A stretch of DNA of 64,000 nucleotides, from positions 6,919,322-6,983,321 of the forward strand of contig NC_060062.1 of assembly GCF_020283565.1 (NCBI RefSeq), written 5' to 3'. The notes under the pieces are model-generated. The model was not told the DNA's origin. It saw only the letters and a program-made list of their open reading frames with translations, and did no database searches. Made by a program: the position numbers and the translations under genes. This document shows, in pieces, positions 45,843 to 64,000 of the stretch (its first letter is position 1; each line of letters begins with the position of its first letter). This DNA is from Trifolium pratense (Eukaryota; Streptophyta; Magnoliopsida; Fabales; Fabaceae).

Positions 45843-46560
45843 TGTTGGGAAACCAGACTAAATAGTCTCTTTAAAATGCGGAATTAACTCTCCCAACCAC
45901 CTGTGCAATTAAATGGGCAACCAGAAAATTCCAATAGCGGAGCAAAATAATAACGACGGTAAAATAAATATCAGACACCAGAATTTTACGTGGAAAATCC
46001 TCTCAATGTGAGAGAATAAAAAACCACGGGTCTAGCCAGATAAATCTTCCACTATAAATCAATAATGGGTACACAAATAGTCTTCTAGTAAATACTAGGA
46101 ACACCAATAATCATCACCTAAAGGTGGAATCAAACAACAACTCAATTTCCACACAAGTGGGTAAATTAACACAACCTAGAGAGAGATTTAAACAACCAAT
46201 AAAATTATCTAAGTGATAGAAAACACATACTCAAATTGTTACTTAAATCAAGTAACACTTTATCACTTGAATCACAAAAAAAATCTCTTCTCAAAAGAAC
46301 AAAGCCGTCGCTGCACTTTCTCCCTGTTTCTGGTGTGCGTGTGCTGCTGCTGTTGTTCTCACAATTGTGTTCTTCAATATATATGTATATATTAGGGATT
46401 AAAGAATCCCTTTATTCTTCTTGTCTTCACGTGACAAGGCCATGGGTCAATAATAAATCAAGCCCCATTCCTTTTAACACCTCCCCTTTAATTCTTTTTC
46501 TTTTATTTCTTTTTCTTATAATTGACGTGGGCCCCACTTGGAGAGTGAACCCACCCAACA
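45843..46560 (-). repeat. Copia 3' LTR
   Basis: Starts TGTTGGGAAACC and ends CACCCAACA. It is nearly identical to 49222-49939. Among the differences are a missing G in the first GGGG run and an extra A near 46023. Confidence 0.93.
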
Positions 46561-46574
46561 AATCTCCCCCTCAC
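46561..46574 (-). other. Copia polypurine tract
   Basis: On the minus strand GTGAGGGGGAGATT directly adjoins the 3' LTR, as expected for the plus-strand priming site. Confidence 0.8.
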
Positions 46575-46577
46575 GAC

Positions 46578-49175
46578 TCAAGTGGGGAGGGATCGTTCTA
46601 CCTTGGTAGCCTTCTTTGGTGCTCTTTTGCCCTTAGGCAATTTCACCAACTTAAATGTATTTTTCTCATGCAAGGAACTTCTCTCTTCTTGCATGGCTTC
46701 AAACCACTTTTCTTTATCAACATCTGTCATAATCTCTTGGTAGTAATCTGTCTCTCCACTATCAGTGACTGTTACATAATCTTGTGGAGGATATCTTTGA
46801 GAAACTTGACGCTCTCTACTTGACCTTCTCAACTCAGGTTCAACCGATGACTCAGAAGGCTCCTCTTCAACTGGCTCATCATGATCATATGTGTGATCAT
46901 TAGTTACATTCTCATCATCTACCTGTACATCTCCCCCATCAACAAGAGTTCCACTGGGAGGTTTAGGCACAACATCAATGTAACTTCTAGCATCAGATTT
47001 CTGTTTCTCAGCTTTCTCAAAGTCTTCAATGGTCTGGTCTTCGAGGAATTTCACATCTCGGCTTCTAACAATTTTCTTATCAACAGGGTCCCACAATCTA
47101 TAGTCAAACTGTTCATTGCCATAACCCATGAACAAACACTGCTTCGATTTCTTATCAAGCTTGGATCTTTCATCTCTTAGAATGTGAACAAAAGCTCTGC
47201 AGCCAAACACTCTCAAATAACCATAAGAGACATCTTTCCCTGTCCAAACTCTATTTGGAACATCACCATCAAGTGGAATAGAAGGAGAAAGGTTGATCAA
47301 ATCCACTGCAGTCTTCATTGCTTCACCCCAAAAGGCTTTCGACAACTTTGCATGAGAGAGCATACACCTAACCCTTTCATTAATGGTACGATTCATTCTC
47401 TCTGCAACTCCGTTGTGTTGAGGAGTCTTTGGAACTGTCTTCTCAAGCTTGATACCATGCTCTTTGCAATACTCTTCAAATGGACCTCTGTATTCACCAC
47501 CATTGTCTGCTCGAATACACTTCAGTTTCCTTCCTGTTTCTCTTTCAACACTTGCATGGAATTGCTTAAAAGTACCTAGTACCTGGTCTTTAGATTTCAA
47601 AACAAAAGCCCACACTTTTCTAGAGTGGTCATCAATAAAAGTAACAAAATATAAAGCACCACCAAGAGATTTACTATCCATCATGCAAACATCAGTGTGA
47701 ATTAAATCTAAAATATTCTGCCTCCTATGAGGACCAGAACTACGAAAGGAAACTCTATGTTGTTTACCATAAAAACAATGAGTGCAAGTTTTTAAAGGTG
47801 TACCTTTTACCGGAAGAAAATTTTTCTTCGCAAGAATGCTAAGTCCTTTCTGACTCAGATGACCAAGGCGTGTGTGCCACAAATCAGTCGATACATCTTC
47901 AACTGCGTTCACCTCCTCCTTGCACAACTTTACAGGCATCCTGTAAAGACTCGTGGGACTTTGCTCCTTTGCTACCACTAAAGAACCTTTGGTGATCTTA
48001 CATATTCCATCACCACCAAAGTAAGTGTGATAGCCCTCAATATCTAAGGCTTTGACTGAAATCACGTTTAGATGGATATCTGGAACATGTCTAACATTCT
48101 TCAACTGAAGCTTGCAACCAATACTAGTTTCAACCCAAACATCTCCCATACCAACAATTTTACAAACTCCCTCATTTCCCATTTTTACCGTACCAAAGTC
48201 ACCAATGGTATAAGATGAGAAGAAATCGCGCCTAGGAGTAACATGGTATGAGGCACCCGAATCAATAATCCAAGTTGAATCATGACTGGCAAGATTTATG
48301 GAATCATCATCATCACAAATAATGTAGACATCGGTAGCACTATCATGTGCAAATGCAGAAGTGTTTTTATCACTTTCATTCTCACTATCATCGTCTCTTT
48401 CCCTTAGTTGATCTCTCTTAAGCAATCTGCAATATTTCTTTATATGTCCCTCCCTGTTACAATAGAAACAGGTAAATTCTTTTCTGGCTTTTGACTTGCT
48501 GCGCCTCTCAGATTTATCATGCTTATGGAAATTTTTATTTTGGCTTCTCCCCCGTGACTCTGTAACAAGAGCTTCTGACTGAGTAGGAGAACCAATCAAA
48601 CCACGCTCTTTTCTTCGAGCCTCTTCATTAAGCATGCTTTCTTTAACCGTTGACATTACCAGCTTCCCACTTGGAGCTGAGTTTGTCAGTGTCACAACAA
48701 GAACTTCCCAGTTGTCAGGCAAAGAACTGAGCAATAATAAAGCCTGCAACTCATCATCCAGCTTAATATCAGTAGCTGTCAACTGATTCACCGTGTTCTG
48801 AAACACACTCATATGCTCTGCCATTGACTCACCATCTTTATACTTCATGTTAACCAGCTTTCGAATCAAACATGCTTTATTCTGCACATTCTTCCGTTCA
48901 TACAATTCTTTCAATTTATTCCACATTGTATGAGCATTCGTTTCAGCTTCAACATGAGGATACACACTTAAATCAAGCCACTGCCTGATAATAGCCACTG
49001 CTTTTCTATTCATCTTCTTCCAATCAGTATCTGAAGTATCCTTCGATCTAGCACTTTCACCCTCAATGGGATCATACAAATCTTTTGTATATAGCAAATC
49101 TTCCATGAGAGTCTTCCAAAGTGTGTAATTGAAAGAGTTCAACTTAATCATATTCAGCTCTGAATTTTTCTCCAT
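46578..49175 (-). CDS. Copia gag-protease-integrase polyprotein, truncated before reverse transcriptase
   Basis: One open frame of about 865 aa (ATG at 49173-49175, MEKNSEL; the upstream TTG is not needed). In order: a UBN2-type gag; zinc knuckle CFYCNREGHIKKYC at about residues 236-249; aspartic protease motif IIDSGAS at about 303-309; GAG-pre-integrase HTRLGHLSQKG; and the integrase core with HTDVC, RADNGGEY and NGVAERMNRTI, which supply the DDE-type residues. The frame ends at SSLHEKNTFKLVKLPKGKRA plus about 13 unrelated residues, exactly where reverse transcriptase should begin, and the 3' LTR starts 17 bp later. RT and RNase H are therefore deleted, while gag, protease and integrase stay open. 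Confidence 0.93.
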   Translation of the reverse strand: MEKNSELNMIKLNSFNYTLWKTLMEDLLYTKDLYDPIEGESARSKDTSDTDWKKMNRKAVAIIRQWLDLSVYPHVEAETNAHTMWNKLKELYERKNVQNKACLIRKLVNMKYKDGESMAEHMSVFQNTVNQLTATDIKLDDELQALLLLSSLPDNWEVLVVTLTNSAPSGKLVMSTVKESMLNEEARRKERGLIGSPTQSEALVTESRGRSQNKNFHKHDKSERRSKSKARKEFTCFYCNREGHIKKYCRLLKRDQLRERDDDSENESDKNTSAFAHDSATDVYIICDDDDSINLASHDSTWIIDSGASYHVTPRRDFFSSYTIGDFGTVKMGNEGVCKIVGMGDVWVETSIGCKLQLKNVRHVPDIHLNVISVKALDIEGYHTYFGGDGICKITKGSLVVAKEQSPTSLYRMPVKLCKEEVNAVEDVSTDLWHTRLGHLSQKGLSILAKKNFLPVKGTPLKTCTHCFYGKQHRVSFRSSGPHRRQNILDLIHTDVCMMDSKSLGGALYFVTFIDDHSRKVWAFVLKSKDQVLGTFKQFHASVERETGRKLKCIRADNGGEYRGPFEEYCKEHGIKLEKTVPKTPQHNGVAERMNRTINERVRCMLSHAKLSKAFWGEAMKTAVDLINLSPSIPLDGDVPNRVWTGKDVSYGYLRVFGCRAFVHILRDERSKLDKKSKQCLFMGYGNEQFDYRLWDPVDKKIVRSRDVKFLEDQTIEDFEKAEKQKSDARSYIDVVPKPPSGTLVDGGDVQVDDENVTNDHTYDHDEPVEEEPSESSVEPELRRSSRERQVSQRYPPQDYVTVTDSGETDYYQEIMTDVDKEKWFEAMQEERSSLHEKNTFKLVKLPKGKRAPKKATKVERSLPT

Positions 49176-49205
49176 TTTAAAATTGCACAAAACAAATCAA
49201 CCAAA

Positions 49206-49218
49206 GCTCTAGATACCA
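49206..49218 (-). other. Copia primer-binding site (initiator Met tRNA type)
   Basis: On the minus strand TGGTATCTAGAGC lies 3 bp inside the 5' LTR. It resembles the usual initiator-Met tRNA site TGGTATCAGAGC. Confidence 0.8.
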
Positions 49219-49221
49219 CTT

Positions 49222-49939
49222 TGTTGGGGAAACCAGACTAAATAGTCTCTTTAAAATGCGGAATTAACTCTCCCAACCACCTGTGCAATTAAATGGGCAA
49301 CCAGAAAATTCCAATAGCGGAGCAAAATAATAACGACGGTAAAATAAATATCAGACACCAGAATTTTACGTGGAAAATCCTCTCAATGTGAGAGAATAAA
49401 AACCACGGGTCTAGCCAGATAAATCTTCCACTATAAATCAATAATGGGTACACAAATAGTTTTCTAGTAAATACTAGGAACACCAATAATCATCACCTAA
49501 AGGTGGAATCAAACAACAACTTAATTTCCACACAAGTGGGTAAATTAACACAACCTAGAGAGAGATTCAAACAACCAATAAAATTATCTAAGTGATAGAA
49601 AACACATACTCAAATTGTTACTTAAATCAAGTAACACTTTATCACTTGAATCACAAAAAAAATCTCTTCTCAAAAGAACAAAGCCGTCGCTGCACTTTCT
49701 CCCTGTTTCTGGTGTGCGTGTGCTGCTGCTGTTGTTCTCACAATTGTGTTCTTCAATATATATGTATATATTAGGGATTAAAAAATCCCTTTATTCTTCT
49801 TGTCTTCACGTGACAAGGCCATGGGCCAATAATAAATCAAGCCCCATTCCTTTTAACACCTCCCCTTTAATTCTTTTTCTTTTATTTCTTTTTCTTATAA
49901 TTGGCGTGGGCCCCACTTGGGGAGTGAACCCACCCAACA
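49222..49939 (-). repeat. Copia 5' LTR
   Basis: 718 bp, TGTTGGGG...CCCAACA. It carries the promoter for the minus-strand polyprotein. It is almost identical to 45843-46560. Confidence 0.93.
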
Positions 49940-50343
49940 ATATATTCTTCTAAAATATTCTTAATTCACATTTATGAATGATCATAGTTGTTTGTGATTG
50001 GCTAAACTATATTTCAGCTCTTGATCATAGATTCATAATCTGTTTTGGCTCCATTGCTCCATTTACTACCTACTATGATCCTAAATGATACAAACTGCAG
50101 ATGCATTTGCATTTTTTTGCTGAAGTAAACTGCAGATCACTTACTACGAAAGTCTTCATTCCTTCACAATGTAATCAAAATTGGACTAGACCAGCATGTT
50201 CAACCAATTGAATTAGGAACTGGACCTACATTCGGTCCACATAGTCTCATTAAACACTATGGCAAAAAACCAACCTAAAAACCGGTAAGAAACCTCACAA
50301 AGCCAGTGTTGGCCGGTTTGTCACGGTTCAAGACAAAAACAAC

Positions 50344-56566: not shown

Positions 56567-57713
56567 GGCTTTAATGCACTTTTGATCCCCCTATTTTGAA
56601 AAACTTGAACTTTTGATCCCCTTATTTTAAAAGCCAACTTTTTGATCCCCCTATTTTAGTTTTTTATGAATTTTGATCCCCCATCTCAATTTGGTCAAAG
56701 TTTTGCTTATGTGTCATGCTCATTGATGATGTGGCAGTGTACACATTGACATATCATATTCCATGTCATTATTATTATTTTTTAAAATAAAATATTATCT
56801 TTTAAAAATATTAAAATAATAAAAAAAAATTAAATAATTAAAAATAGTAAATTAACCAAATATATAATTAAAAATTACTAAATAACCCAAATATTTAATT
56901 AAAAATTAATAATTTACTCAAATATATAATTAAAAATAGTAAATTACTCGAAAATATAATTAAAAATTAATAAATTACCCCAACAACATGGATTTGATAG
57001 CAATGTGTGGGCTTGCTTCATGAATTGCATTGATATATGTTAACAAACTAAAGCAATAAAGTAATTTTGAGAGGAAACAATACAGCAAACATACCTCATA
57101 AAATCCTTCACGTTAGTCATTTTCTTGTTGATGAAGAATTGTTCACGCGATTGCTTCGAAAAACAACCGTTCACTCGAGCGCGTTGAAGAAGAACTGTTC
57201 ACGAACGATTGAGAGGGAGAAGTCGATCAACGATTTGTGTTTTTGATTTTCTAGGGTTCCATTTGGGAACCAACTTTGCGTTTCTCACTTCTTTGAAATC
57301 AAGAACGTGATCGTGTGCAGAGAATTAACAAGAGAAAGAAAAACTTTTTGATTTCCCATTATACTTCTTTGATTTTAGTTATATAATTAGTTATATAATA
57401 TAATGTTTTAATACTTTTAATAATTACTGATTTTTTTTATAAGATTAATTACTGATTTTTTATTAACTATTTTTTATTATTTTAATATTTGATTTTAAAA
57501 AATAATAATAATGACATGGAATATGATATGTCAATATGTACACTGCCACATCATCAATGAGAATGACACATAAGCAAAACTTTGACCAAATTGAGATGGG
57601 GGACCAAAATTCATAAAAAACTAAAATAGGGGGATCAAAAAGTTGGCTTTTAAAATAGGGGGATCAAAAGTTCAAGTTTTTCAAAATAGGGGGATCAAAA
57701 GTGAATTAAAGCC
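56567..57713. mobile_element. Long fold-back element, Mutator-like (MULE) MITE
   Basis: 1147 bp with terminal inverted repeats of about 240 bp. The ends are GGCTTTAATGCACTTTTGAT and, complemented from the right, GGCTTTAATTCACTTTTGAT. Inside each arm the phrase TTTTGATCCCCCTATTTT repeats three to four times at short spacing. The flanks are A-rich (AAAAAAAAA and AAAAAAGAA), compatible with a 9-bp duplication but not informative. No transposase is present. The centre (57090-57340) holds GC-richer sequence with no clear ORF. Confidence 0.75.
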
Positions 57714-59173: not shown

Positions 59174-62100
59174 ATGGGAGATTTCAACTTAGCACTAGTA
59201 ATCGTAGCGATCGTTGTATGCATAATCGTGTTCATCTTCAATGTCTACCTTCTTGTTAACTACCAACATCCCGATGACGTTAATCAAGCTTACTTCCCTA
59301 AATTCGTCGTCGTTTTGGGTCTCTCTGTTGCAGCCATTTCAATTCTCATGCTCCCCGCCGATGTGGCTAACCGGCATGCTTGTCGTCATGCCATTTATAA
59401 TGGAGCGTGTAATCTCACACTCCCCATGAAAGATCTTTGGCTTGCGGTTTATATCCTTGACGCTATTCTTGTTTTCTTCGTTATTCCGTTTGCAATGTTT
59501 TACTATGAAGGTGACCAAGATAAGTAAGTGCATTGCATTTTTTCAATTAACTAACTAGTTTTCATCAAATAGTAGTGATCATTTTTTTATTATTTGCTCA
59601 AAATTAAGTTGAAACAAGAATTAAGTTGATGGATTTTCATATCCCTTAGGAATTAAATTGACGAATTTTGGACCTTTGGGAAGTCCTTGTGTTGCACCTC
59701 GTTATTTGTATAAAAAAAAATATTTTGACAAATTTCGGATATTTTAGGGACTACTTATTAAATTTATATATATAGTTTAGGGACTAAATTGTGGATAGAG
59801 TGATAGTTTAGGGACTAAACTGACGGTTTATTCTTTAAACAATCATGCTAATGTAGCATAGCACTTTAGAGTTTAGAAAGAAGAGGCCACATCCTTCACC
59901 AAACTTTCATTCTTCTCAGTCTCGCCCACCACATCCTTTGTCTTTATCCTTGCCAATATCCTTACTGCAGGCTGAGGTGCAGTTAACTTCCTTCGGGTTT
60001 TAGGCCGAGGTGGAGGCGAAGCAAGTGCATTATCACCCGAGGATAACGAGGCCACATCCTTCACCAATCTTTCATTCTTCTCAGTCTCGCCCACCACATC
60101 CTCCGTCAAAGTTTCATTCTTCTCCATCTCACGCACAATCTCCGTCAAACTTTTATTCACATCCTCCGTCAAACTTTTATTCTCCTCGGTTGTCACACAA
60201 TATTCACATGGTATAATCTGAAAAATGAAAGGAAAAAACCAGAACCAGTGGGCCTATAAACTTCCATAACAATCTCACACTCCCTCACCTCACTCTATAT
60301 ACTACTAAGAAGTATAACAAATAGTGCAAAAAAATACCTCGTCGGCTTTGATAGTTTTTAACACTTCCCAATCATCCCTTTTAGCATCATACTTTTGAAT
60401 TGGTGGGTAATCAAAAGACGATAGGTTTACATCTAAAGAAGGTATTCTCTCAAACAAAACAGCCTAACATTAATTAAGTAAAATATGTTAGCAAAAAATA
60501 AACCACATGAAAAATATAAGATATTAACAAAAAATGGAAATTAACAATTACCTCGAAAACTGGCGCACACCCTTTAAAATTGTATGTTTTTGCAACTCCC
60601 CTTTTGATTGCATTTTTGAGCTTATTGAATGATACATGTAAGTCATCATAGATTGCTTCAGCCCAGTTCACTTTTTCATATATATTAAGATCTTCTACCA
60701 TTGCCCAAGACGACGTACGCGGTCTCTTGGGATCCGTGGAGGGTACCAAAAACAACTCAATCAAAAAATAGCAGAAGAGTTTCTTAAAATTTAATTTACT
60801 TTCCTCGTCATTCACATTCACATTCATTTCACTCAAAAGTTTCTTAATTGTTGCTGTAGAGATTTCCCTAGAACTTAGATTACATTCTTTCATTAGGTCA
60901 TAGACAAATTCTGGAACTCTTTTTGCAGCAGGGGTGGATAAACTAAGCTCGGTATTTTCAAGACCCAACACATTTGCCACCTCTTTGGCACAGAAATAAA
61001 AAGATGTGTTATTGCCACCTCTTTTCAAGACCCAACAATAACACATCTTTTTCTTTCTGTGCCAAAGAGGTGGCAAATGTGTTGGGTCTTGAAAATACCG
61101 GGCTTAGTTTATCCACCCCTGCTGCAAAAAGAGTTCCAGAATTTGTCTATGACCTAATGAAAGAATGTAATCTAAGTTCTAGGGAAATCTCTACAGCAAC
61201 AATTAAGAAACTTTTGAGTGAAATGAATGTGAATGTGAATGACGAGGAAAGTAAATTAAATTTTAAGAAACTCTTCTGCTATTTTTTGAATGAGTTGTTT
61301 TTGGTACCCTCCACGGATCCCAAGAGACCGCGTACGTCGTCTTGGGCAATGGTAGAAGATCTTAATATATATGAAAAAGTGAACTGGGCTGAAGCAATCT
61401 ATGATGACTTACATGTATCATTCAATAAGCTCAAAAATGCAATCAAAAGGGGAGTTGCAAAAACATACAATTTTAAAGGGTGTGCGCCAGTTTTCGAGGT
61501 AATTGTTAATTTCCATTTTTTGTTAATATCTTATATTTTTCATGTGGTTTATTTTTTGCTAACATATTTTACTTAATTAATGTTAGGCTGTTTTGTTTGA
61601 GAGAATACCTTCTTTAGATGTAAACTTATCGTCTTTTGATTACCCACCAATTCAAAAGTATGATGCTAAAAGGGATGATTGGGAAGTGTTAAAAACTATC
61701 AAAGCCGACGAGGTATTTTTTTGCACTATTTGTTATACTTCTTAGTAGTATATAGAGTGAGGTGAGGGAGTGTGAGATTGTTATGGAAGTTTATAGGCCC
61801 ACTGGTTCTGGTTTTTTCCTTTCATTTTTCAGATTATACCATGTGAATATTGTGTGACAACCGAGGAGAATAAAAGTTTGACGGAGGATGTGAATAAAAG
61901 TTTGACGGAGATTGTGGGTGAGATGGAGAAGAATGAAACTTTGACGGAGGATGTGGTGGGCGAGACTGAGAAGAATGAAAGATTGGTGAAGGATGTGGCC
62001 TTGTTATCCTCGGGTGATAATGCACTTGCTTCGCCTCCACCTCGGCCTAAAACCCGAAGGAAGTTAACTGCACCTCAGCCTGCAGTAAGGATATTGGCAA

Positions 62101-64000
62101 GGATAAAGACAAAGGATGTGGTGGGCGAGACTGAGAAGAATGAAAGTTTGGTGAAGGATGTGGCCTCTTTATCCTTGGGTGATGTGCTCGAGTTTCTAAT
62201 AACATGTCAGTGTCTGATAGTCACTACAAGTGCGATTATATACCATCACTTTTATTTTCTCAAATTATAATTATTTATGGTGTCTATGTGTTAGTATTTG
62301 TGTTGTGTCTGGTGTCTATGTTTTTAGTTGATGGTTAATAGATATGTAGTGTAGTTTCTTCTATTTAGAAAGAAAATTGATGTTTTGTGATTTGAGAACA
62401 ATGTAATGAGTGATGGGATTCTGTGTGCAGGAGTATTGGGAAGAGGATTAAGAGTGCGTTGTGCTGGATGGTGACAACTACTATTGTGTGTGCTCTCGTT
62501 TTGGGTATTTTGTATGGTATGTATGTTTGCTTCCATGACGCTCTTGTTGATTTTGTACTTTTCAGTTTGACACTGTTGGTTTATTTCTTTGACTTGCTCT
62601 GTTTTTGTATGCGGTAGTGATAAGTTGGTAATTTGAGTGTTGGTTCTAAGTTTTAATTTTGTTATAAGAATTATGAACACGGTTGTTTCAATTTTAGGAC
62701 TTTGTTGGTTTGATGGTCATTATGGTAGAATGCAATGGTCTGATGTCATTGTTGGACAATGATTAGTGTGATTGAGCAGTGGGCCAAGCGTTAGAACTAG
62801 ATAAAAAGATAGATAGGTAGATAGAATGAGAGAGAAGAGTTAGCAGTATTAGATTGTGTTGTCACAAAGGACGGCTCATTTGTTTCTTGCCGATGATCAC
62901 TCGTTGATTTATAATCGGTAGGCAGAGGAATCCATTGATTATCATGATGCTCCTTGTCTCCAGCTAATTAAGTACAAGGAAAAGAAAGAAGTAGGGTTTA
63001 GTGGTTTATTTCAGAAGTGGTTTATCATCAAAGGTATTACTTATTGAAGTTTCGTTGACATATAAAACAATGTACTGTATCACTTAGCAGGATATGTAAC
63101 CATATGACATGATTTGCTCCTATTCTTTTGTTGAAGTGTCGCTTTGCCAATTTTTATTAGAGATGGGTTAAGCCAGATAGATTGTTGCTTTGTGTTATAG
63201 ATTTAAAACCCTTGGACTTCATCTTAGAGTTCATACAAGAGATATAAATTGTTTCTCAGCTTCCACCATGCAACTCAACCTTGGCGAGGTTTAGTCCTTT
63301 GGTGAGGTTTAGTCCTTGACATGGTATTAGAGTCGTTAATGTGGGCAGGAAGTCATTTCTAGTTGCCCTATTCTTCATTAATCAAAATAATAAAATAAAA
63401 TTTCAGCACAACTTGTAGATTAGATCGGGCTTGTGCATTTTCCATGCTTCAAGGGAAGGGCTCCTGGGTCCTGCATGAGGGGCCATGTAGCATCCTCCAA
63501 AATCCATGATTACATGTTTGCAACTTGTAAAGCAATAACAACATGTATGCACCACATACCACCCTCTAAGATGTATAAACACTAATTACAGCTCATTCTT
63601 TTTTCCCAAGAGTTTTCTATGCCTGTATAAGTGTAAAATCTGATTCTTCCATGTTAATCACCCATTGTCTTGAGTGAACTTTTAAAATATGTTCCTGATG
63701 TGATGTAATGTGAGGTGTCTGACTGTGCTTTTATTATGAGTGGTATATCAGGGCTTATTGGGAAGGTCGATTTTACTGTGAGGCATTTGTCTTCTTCCAC
63801 AAGCTCATTTCCTGGCTCATGGCAACAATTCAATAGTGGTCAAGAGTGTATTGGAACTGGCACCCGTCAGGTCCATTTTCTTTTACTAGTCCATTTTTAT
63901 GCTGGTTTTAATTTTAAATTTTTTTTTTCTTTTCTGTTTCTCATTCTTACTTTTCACCTTTGTCCATAAAACAGTGCTCTGCATACTCGGCTAGTCCTTC
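59174..64000 (+). CDS. LIMR / LMBR1-like membrane protein, 5' part (3' end outside window)
   Basis: A polytopic membrane protein of the LMBR1/LIMR (lipocalin receptor-like) family; its role in plants is poorly known. Exons read by eye are 59174-59523, 62431-62516, 63752-63870 and 63975 to the window end. The joins K(AA|G)S-IGKRIKSAL, YG|GLIGKVDF and RQ|CSAYSASPS keep the frame. The N-terminus MGDFNLALVIVAIVVCIIVF is a membrane segment, followed by NYQHPDDVNQAYFPKFVVV, LPADVANRHACRHAIYNGAC and LWLAVYILDAILVFFVIPFA. These nearly match Arabidopsis At5g01460 and At3g08930 as remembered. Intron 1 (59524-62430) is about 2.9 kb because it contains the palindrome at 59881-62169. Intron 2 has retrotransposon-like debris (GGTATTAGAGTCG near 63322). 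Confidence 0.93.
59881..61014 (-). pseudogene. Left-arm copy of an unknown multi-exon gene fragment
   Basis: Reads leftward with the same exons as the right arm. The exon from 61014 inwards carries VLGLENTELSLSTPAAKRVP and EFVYDLMKECNLSS. It is followed by the middle exon (FERIPSLDVNLSSF, DWEVLKTIKADE) and the repeat-rich exon (NKSLTEDV, EKNETLTEDV). It ends abruptly at 59881 inside VKDVAS. Splice sites are preserved. There is no start codon. Confidence 0.75.
59881..62169. repeat. Near-perfect 2.3-kb palindrome in LIMR intron 1
   Basis: The left arm 59881-61014 and right arm 61036-62169 are both exactly 1134 bp and inverted copies of each other, with about six substitutions seen by eye and no indels. 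The 21-bp spacer 61015-61035 is CCACCTCTTTTCAAGACCCA plus one A; both halves of it also occur in the adjacent arm (GCCACCTCTTT and TTTTCAAGACCCAA), which suggests a microhomology template switch. Gene-like sequence continues past the outer end of the right arm only. Confidence 0.95.
61036..62270 (+). pseudogene. Right-arm copy of an unknown multi-exon gene fragment
   Basis: Exons as read: about 61036-61498, 61587-61712 and 61833-62270, with GT-AG borders and matching phase 0. The first encodes AKEVANVLGLENTGLSLSTP, TIKKLLSEMN, LNFKKLFCYFLNELFLVPST, NWAEAIYDDLHVSFNKLKNA and YNFKGCAPVFE. The second encodes AVLFERIPSLDVNLSSFDYP and DDWEVLKTIKADE. The third is rich in repeats of (N/E)KSLTEDV and ETEKNE, then PPPRPKTRRKLTAPQP. 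The pattern loosely recalls the plant DUF1985 or plant-mobile-domain proteins spread by transposons, but I cannot name it with confidence. There is no start codon because the 5' end is cut at the palindrome centre. Confidence 0.7.

What the first reader, a model, noticed from the sequence alone, without database searches (positions are those of the whole stretch)
59881..62169. Large near-identical hairpin locus inside an intron of a conserved gene
Seen: two 1134-bp arms, inverted, gap-free, about 99.5% identical, with a 21-bp loop, in intron 1 of the LIMR gene. Known: long inverted repeats transcribed through give dsRNA that Dicer-like enzymes cut, for example the chalcone synthase inverted repeat in soybean, and young MIRNA genes can arise this way. 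Inference: every LIMR pre-mRNA would include a 1.1-kb hairpin, so the host gene's promoter may drive siRNAs against the gene family whose fragment forms the arms. This would be a natural intronic RNAi trigger.
Basis: partly seen in the sequence, partly recalled or inferred. Interest (0 to 1): 0.88.

Follow-up and report, generated by a model that had tools for sequence, protein, structure and literature searches.

The report
Large DNA hairpin in clover intron
Red clover carries an inserted 2.5-kb DNA hairpin, made from a transposon-like gene, inside an intron of a conserved membrane-protein gene; two more large inverted repeats made from the same gene family were found in its genome, but whether any of them makes silencing RNA is untested.

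Summary
The palindrome is real as assembled: arms 59881-61014 and 61036-62169, 1134 bp, 6 substitutions, no indel, 21-bp loop, inside LIMR intron 1 (59524-62430) of red clover. It fills most of an inferred 2481-bp insertion (59883-62363) flanked by an 11-bp direct repeat. The right arm is a sense fragment of a three-exon, DUF1985-like gene; the left arm is an inverted copy. The loop consists of arm pieces with 3-nt overlaps, suggesting template switching. Another T. pratense contig has the right arm's last exon beside LIMR exon 2. If the intron is diced, effects in cis are likelier. Unexpectedly, 3 of 10 examined loci of this subfamily are long inverted repeats (arms 858-1134 bp, at least 98%), against none of that size in 200 kb of random sequence, a weak control. 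One shares 232-253 perfect 21-mers with each of three dispersed copies and is the better silencing candidate. No small-RNA data were available.

The parts
59174..59523 (+). LIMR (LMBR1-like, At5g01460-like) coding exon 1
   Evidence: P0011 and P0009 residues 1-117 match 100%; start codon and donor read
59524..62430 (+). LIMR intron 1, 2907 nt; would be 415 nt without the inferred insertion
   Evidence: GTAAGT donor and GTGCAG acceptor
59872..59882 (.). left copy of 11-bp direct repeat TTTAGAAAGAA (target-site-duplication-like)
   Evidence: a match of 11 bp or more to the right flank arose in 1 of 2000 dinucleotide shuffles
59883..62363 (.). inferred whole insertion, 2481 bp
   Evidence: bounded by the 11-bp direct repeat; its left boundary lies within 2 bp of the left arm's edge
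59881..61014 (-). left arm: antisense copy of the DUF1985-like gene fragment
61015..61035 (.). 21-bp loop made of pieces of 60974-60986 and 60955-60970
   Evidence: 61012-61024 repeats 60974-60986, 61022-61037 repeats 60955-60970, overlaps of 3 nt
61036..62169 (+). right arm: sense copy
61034..61498 (+). gene-fragment exon 1 (DUF1985-like domain, cut at its 5' end inside the exon)
   Evidence: aligned with P0005, P0001, P0002
61587..61712 (+). gene-fragment exon 2
   Evidence: continues the frame of P0001 and P0002; intron edges read
61833..62270 (+). gene-fragment exon 3 with tandem peptide repeats; frame runs beyond the right arm
   Evidence: open frame 61797-62270
62170..62363 (+). unpaired right tail of the inferred insertion
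   Evidence: with query 62170-62431, only self in full length; 26 weak partial matches
62364..62374 (.). right copy of the 11-bp direct repeat
62431..62516 (+). LIMR exon 2
   Evidence: P0011 residues 117-147 at 62429-62521; edges read

Best explanation
A 2.5-kb segment from a transposon-like DUF1985-type gene was inserted into LIMR intron 1 of red clover, probably while a staggered DNA break was repaired (11-bp flanking duplication). During that synthesis the copying strand switched template several times at 3-nt overlaps and turned back, so the gene fragment was laid down twice in opposite orientation, leaving a loop patched from arm pieces (sequence shown, process inferred). With 0.5% arm divergence the palindrome is probably young (inferred). 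LIMR transcription then places a 1.1-kb near-perfect duplex in every unspliced pre-mRNA (follows from position). Most likely part of it is diced into 21-24-nt siRNAs that act mainly in cis, as methylation of the intron, because no close target gene was found in this genome (inferred).
For: Arms, loop and intron position. Direct repeat. Loop made of arm pieces. Both arms come from one source: both carry the same two extra residues relative to P0005 and the same repeat spaced 165 bp. Differences fall on both arms: against relatives the left arm is derived at 61053 and 61101 and the right arm at 61290. Right arm's last exon joined to LIMR exon 2 on a 5558-bp T. pratense contig: P0007. No close parent found. 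Long inverted repeats as probable sRNA precursors in rice: PMC7649420 passages; intronic siRNA clusters called sirtrons: PMC5260113 passages.
Against: No RNA, small-RNA or methylation data. Intronic hairpins may simply be spliced out and degraded. The direct repeat is AT-rich, and 10 bp or more arose in 10 of 2000 shuffles. The 194-bp right tail has no identified source. The palindrome centre and left arm were seen in one assembly only. A red clover LIMR protein of full length exists (P0011), but it comes from another assembly whose intron 1 was not seen.
Confidence: 0.45

Rival explanations
1. Inert passenger: the insertion happened as above, but the intron is spliced and degraded without useful siRNA production; no function.
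For: Five of the six arm differences change an amino acid and one is silent, as in unconstrained sequence (contexts, my reading of the codons); no close target found.
Against: Transcribed long inverted repeats are probable sRNA precursors in rice and siRNA sources in soybean (review passages).
Confidence: 0.33
2. One reading: LIMR's promoter drives siRNAs that silence the parental gene family in trans.
For: Anatomy; a closer relative exists in sequence data, P0005 (species not named), 85% identical with a run of 32 identical residues, so a target may exist in other haplotypes or relatives.
Against: No close parent found in this genome; no perfect 21-mer in the 8 coding relatives compared.
Confidence: 0.1
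3. A transposon of its own (foldback or non-TIR Mutator-like element) that moved into the intron as a hairpin.
For: The 11-bp flanking repeat lies in the 8-11-bp range given for MULEs (PMC6446971 passages); Ulp1- and DUF1985-type genes are carried by non-TIR MULEs (PMC13317346 and PMC5735166 passages); the subfamily has a multi-copy dispersed member (L034-L036).
Against: The left end lies inside coding sequence and the two ends do not mirror each other (7 of the first 20 bases); no second copy of this palindrome found; no transposase in the gene fragment.
Confidence: 0.08
4. Assembly artefact (fold-back read or misjoin).
For: Palindromes are a known artefact class (recalled); the left arm and centre were seen in one assembly only.
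Against: The outer ends rejoin LIMR intron sequence on both sides, so more than one misjoin would be needed; differences are substitutions on both arms, no indels; right arm's last exon beside LIMR on another contig.
Confidence: 0.04

Closest known systems
Long-inverted-repeat siRNA loci (soybean CHS, rice LIR sRNA-QTL loci)
   Same: Near-identical inverted copies that can be transcribed as one hairpin (passages)
   Different: Those have measured small RNAs, and the CHS locus a target; here none was measured and no close target was found
Intronic siRNA clusters (sirtrons)
   Same: Potential dsRNA inside an intron of a coding gene (cites Chen et al. 2011, which was not held)
   Different: No small-RNA evidence; the hairpin comes from an inserted foreign gene fragment
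Mu killer, inverted duplication of a maize MuDR transposon (recalled, not looked up)
   Same: Hairpin made from a transposon-type gene
   Different: Not shown to silence anything; lies in a host intron
VANC anti-silencing genes of VANDAL elements
   Same: DUF1985-type domain and tandem peptide repeats (PMC5735166 passages)
   Different: DUF1985 match is below Pfam's cut-off, and the plant mobile domain (PMD) matches some members as well; no VANA or DUF287 shown
Break repair with templated insertions and flanking duplications (SD-MMEJ; patch-mediated repair in rice)
   Same: Flanking direct repeat, short overlaps, templated pieces (passages)
   Different: Much longer synthesis (over 2 kb) than the small templated insertions described there; the rice paper itself was not held

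Membership tests
Endogenous hairpin siRNA locus | Long near-perfect inverted repeat within one transcription unit | tested here: met
   (transcription itself not seen)
Endogenous hairpin siRNA locus | Transcribed through and diced to 21-24-nt siRNAs from both arms | not testable with these tools
   no RNA data available
Endogenous hairpin siRNA locus | Trans target gene with near-identical 21-mers | tested here: not met
   exceptions: a 104-bp fragment on C2 with 4 perfect 21-mers and a repeat in the arm's intron 2; searches score best candidates only
Sirtron | Intron enriched in siRNAs that methylate the host gene | not testable with these tools
   no small-RNA or methylation data
Mutator-like element (MULE) | 8-11-bp target site duplication | tested here: met
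   11 bp; range
Mutator-like element (MULE) | Terminal inverted repeats, or repeated copies with the same ends | tested here: not met
   ends of the inferred insertion agree at 7 of 20 bases; no other copy found
Mutator-like element (MULE) | Transposase | tested here: not met
   the spliced gene fragment has two sub-threshold Pfam matches, neither a transposase; other frames of the insertion were not scanned; non-autonomous elements lack one anyway
DUF1985 (PF09331) | Pfam match above the gathering score | tested here: inconclusive
   arm gene E=0.038, 14.4 of 35.1 bits; 5 of 6 aligned members match at E<=0.01, best 8.7e-5, best score 23 bits in the row shown; PMD matches 2 of 6, best 4.1e-5; in the genome no DUF1985 match passes the cut-off, and the three long hairpins are not among its 17 rows
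VANC | DUF1985 plus DUF287, beside a VANA transposase in a VANDAL element | not tested
   only the layout (domain plus tandem peptide repeats) was seen:

The most novel reading that the evidence does not exclude
A subfamily of transposon-borne, VANC-like (anti-silencing-type) genes is repeatedly turned into large hairpins in the red clover genome. Three separate inverted repeats of different subfamily members (arms of 858-1134 bp, 98-99.5% alike), plus a shorter and older-looking one, were found among 10 examined subfamily loci. Hairpins lodged in or near host genes, one inside LIMR intron 1, would give the host a constitutive siRNA supply against an element's own counter-defence gene, and loss of close targets, as for the LIMR hairpin, would be the trace of successful silencing.
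Probability: 0.1. Interest if true: 0.82.

Novelty: new member of a known kind. Interest (0 to 1): 0.5.

Why it matters
If siRNAs arise from it, this is a natural intronic hairpin driven by a conserved gene's promoter, with its construction and its missing target readable from sequence. The recurrence in one transposon-type gene subfamily makes a question testable: do hairpins of transposon genes arise and persist by chance, or are they kept because they silence the element? The C7 hairpin with three matching dispersed copies offers a direct test with small-RNA and methylation reads.

Tried and rejected
Chance: rejected by length. Rfam family: no match in the window at gathering threshold. Retrocopy of a spliced mRNA: rejected, both arms keep two introns. 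Terminal inverted repeats of the insertion or in its flanks: none found. A target-site duplication around hairpin 2, or around its 3.5-kb interruption: none found. Close parent gene in the genome: not found. Literature: the listings shown by searches (only the top entries of each) named no red clover hairpin; this covers the open-licence library alone. The one paper listed for red clover plus inverted repeat plus small RNA was not opened. Background rate of palindromes: only 200 kb could be fetched, a weak control.

Against the recurrence reading: a search with the broad DUF1985 model gave 17 rows in this genome; 16 lie outside the subfamily loci, and none has an opposite-strand partner within 3 kb in that table. 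L034-L036 are recent copies of one element, not independent loci. Hairpin 1 is what led here; without it the count is 2 of 9. The fourth, shorter repeat (about 290 bp, 91%) is of a size that random sequence also showed (2 in 200 kb, arms 258 and 389 bp at 87%).

Full report
OBSERVATION. The window contains an inverted repeat with arms 59881-61014 and 61036-62169 (1134 bp, 6 substitutions, no indels) around a 21-bp loop (found again). Folded as RNA, all 1135 predicted pairs are in register, -2111 kcal/mol against -540 for one shuffled sequence. It lies in intron 1 of a LIMR (LMBR1-like) gene on the + strand: exon 1 matches red clover P0011 and subterranean clover P0009 over 117 of 117 residues, and the intron is 59524-62430.

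SPECIES. The window is C4:6919322-6983321 of a 413.6-Mb genome in 90 contigs. Contig C6 is 46,137,615 bases long, exactly the contig length listed for the Trifolium pratense LIMR proteins P0028 and P0029. P0007 and P0011, the nearest proteins to this locus, are also named T. pratense.

WHAT THE ARMS ARE. The right arm reads, in sense, as the 3' part of a three-exon gene. It starts inside exon 1, and the last exon's open frame runs past the arm to 62270. The left arm is an antisense copy that stops earlier. Eight proteins were found at E<=0.001: six Vicia proteins at 51-71% identity, a Logan-assembled relative P0005 at 85% (species not named), and P0007, a red clover LIMR model whose first 90 residues are this arm's last exon. 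A profile search gave 17 at E<=1e-6. The domain is DUF1985-like but below Pfam's cut-off: arm gene E=0.038; 5 of 6 aligned members at E<=0.01, best 8.7e-5; 5 of 10 further relatives. The plant mobile domain (PMD) also matches 2 of those 6, best 4.1e-5, and 2 of the 10. Tandem peptide repeats follow. This layout resembles VANC anti-silencing proteins, which carry DUF1985 and tandem peptide motifs (PMC5735166, passages only). That resemblance is a lead, not a test.

HOW IT AROSE. An 11-bp direct repeat, TTTAGAAAGAA, lies at 59872-59882, ending two bases inside the left arm, and at 62364-62374. Matches of 11 bp or more to that edge arose in 1 of 2000 dinucleotide shuffles of the right flank, and of 10 bp or more in 10. 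This bounds an insertion of 2481 bp; without it the intron would be 415 nt. Its two ends do not mirror each other (7 of 20 bases). The loop is not random: 61012-61024 repeats 60974-60986 and 61022-61037 repeats 60955-60970, with overlaps TTG and TTT, before the strand turns back. Serial template switching during break repair fits this; SD-MMEJ and rice patch repair are the nearest processes seen (PMC7407515 and PMC8355091, passages; the rice paper was not held). Both arms share two extra residues relative to P0005, so they come from one source copy. Polarised by relatives, the left arm is derived at 61053 and 61101 and the right arm at 61290; at 62002 P0007 has the left-arm state but other relatives vary, and 61917 and 61626 stay undecided. 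With recalled plant rates (6.5e-9 to 1.5e-8 per site per year) 0.53% divergence would mean about 0.2-0.4 million years, if gene conversion played no part.

ARTEFACT? A simple fold-back artefact would not rejoin LIMR intron sequence on both sides. The differences are substitutions on both arms. P0007, on a 5558-bp contig, has the arm's last exon joined to LIMR exon 2. P0007 does not show the left arm or the centre. Its first 82 residues match the left arm's reading at 100%, because it has serine where the window's right arm has leucine, so it is either another allele or a collapsed assembly.

TARGETS. DNA search of the genome with the right arm plus 37 bases (35 rows): the two arms themselves, one 104-bp piece at 91% on C2, an inverted pair at 69% on C7, and 30 short matches to a repeat of up to 66 bp in the arm's second intron. 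Protein search: 19 rows at 11 loci, no close parent; identities 26-60%, and 67% over 39 residues in the C2 piece. Both searches score only the best candidates. Of 1114 arm 21-mers, perfect matches number 4 in the C2 piece and 0 in each of 8 coding relatives (L031, L034, L035, L036, L040, L045, L046, L047); with up to two mismatches, 72 in the C2 piece, 4 in L040 (hairpin 2), 0 in the other seven; 0 perfect and 17 with up to two mismatches in each of three copies of the intron repeat. So the proposed silencing of the parental family has no evident target in this genome.

MORE HAIRPINS OF THE SAME SUBFAMILY. The C7 pair is a second palindrome: C7:57459178-57460927, arms of 858 bp at 98%, 50-55% identical in protein to the LIMR hairpin's gene and 93-95% identical to Medicago P0128. 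Inverted similarity continues for 546 bp at 95% beyond a 3.5-kb interruption of the left arm, and the repeat ends about 1 kb beyond the 3' end of a TLC ATP/ADP transporter gene. A third, C7:19403068-19405667, has arms of 865 bp at 98.4% with an 871-bp spacer. It is 93% identical to three dispersed copies on C4 (two) and C2, which are 95-98% alike among themselves over 0.8-2.75 kb and each keep a 235-aa open frame over the domain; 232, 240 and 253 of its 845 21-mers are perfect in them. A fourth locus, C1:22506308, has a shorter inverted repeat (about 290 bp, 91%) and gene pieces in both orientations. Six examined loci show no comparable repeat: C4:34798250, C4:34766586, C2:9217260, C1:29529005, C5:16952889 (a 38-bp self-match only) and the C2:35047576 fragment, within the roughly 1-1.5 kb held on either side. 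C7:6678303 was not examined. So 3 of 10 examined loci carry long inverted repeats and one more a short one.

CONTROL. The broad DUF1985 search gave 17 rows; the 16 outside the subfamily loci show no close inverted pair. By hand, 3 of 10 against 0 of 16 is about p = 0.05; without the hairpin that led here, 2 of 9 against 0 of 16 is about 0.12. Recurrence is suggestive only.

FUNCTION. What is shown is anatomy. That LIMR pre-mRNA contains the duplex follows from position. Dicing, methylation in cis and any effect on LIMR are inferred. A full-length red clover LIMR protein exists (P0011), but from another assembly whose intron was not seen. Long inverted repeats are probable sRNA precursors in rice (PMC7649420 passages) and siRNA sources in soybean (Jia et al. 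2020 as described in PMC8306516). In soybean lines with a transgenic hairpin the relative with 84% identity was silenced much less (PMC4465718 passages). That argues against strong effects on the distant relatives here.

Noticed in passing
L045 (G000 C7:19403068-19405667): Third long inverted repeat of the same subfamily (865-bp arms, 98.4%, 871-bp spacer) with hundreds of perfect 21-mers to each of three dispersed copies; the best candidate for a trans-acting hairpin.
   Followed up: partly
L040 4129-5878 and 131-668/5858-6403 (G000 C7:57455050-57465049): Second palindrome, 98% arms, its outer part separated by a 3.5-kb stretch, about 1 kb from a TLC ATP/ADP transporter gene; its gene is 93-95% identical in protein to Medicago MTR_8g045000.
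   Followed up: partly
L046 791-1076 / 1460-1749 (G000 C1:22505200-22508200): Shorter 91% inverted repeat with DUF1985-like gene pieces in both orientations.
   Followed up: partly
window 61729-61794 (arm intron 2): Stretch of up to 66 bp with 30 other matches in the genome, many in same-strand pairs about 3 kb apart, as in the two ends of an element.
   Followed up: no
window 56567-57713: Element with inverted repeats of 231 bp (97%) upstream of LIMR, MITE- or transposon-like.
   Followed up: no
window 45843-49940: Two direct repeats of about 720 bp, 98.75% alike, around an 872-aa Copia-like polyprotein frame: probably a young LTR retrotransposon (the name Copia is my reading, not a search result).
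   Followed up: no
window 62192 and P0007: A red clover gene model joins the arm's last exon to LIMR exon 2, which in the window would use a weak GT at 62192; it may be a prediction error or a real fusion transcript.
   Followed up: partly
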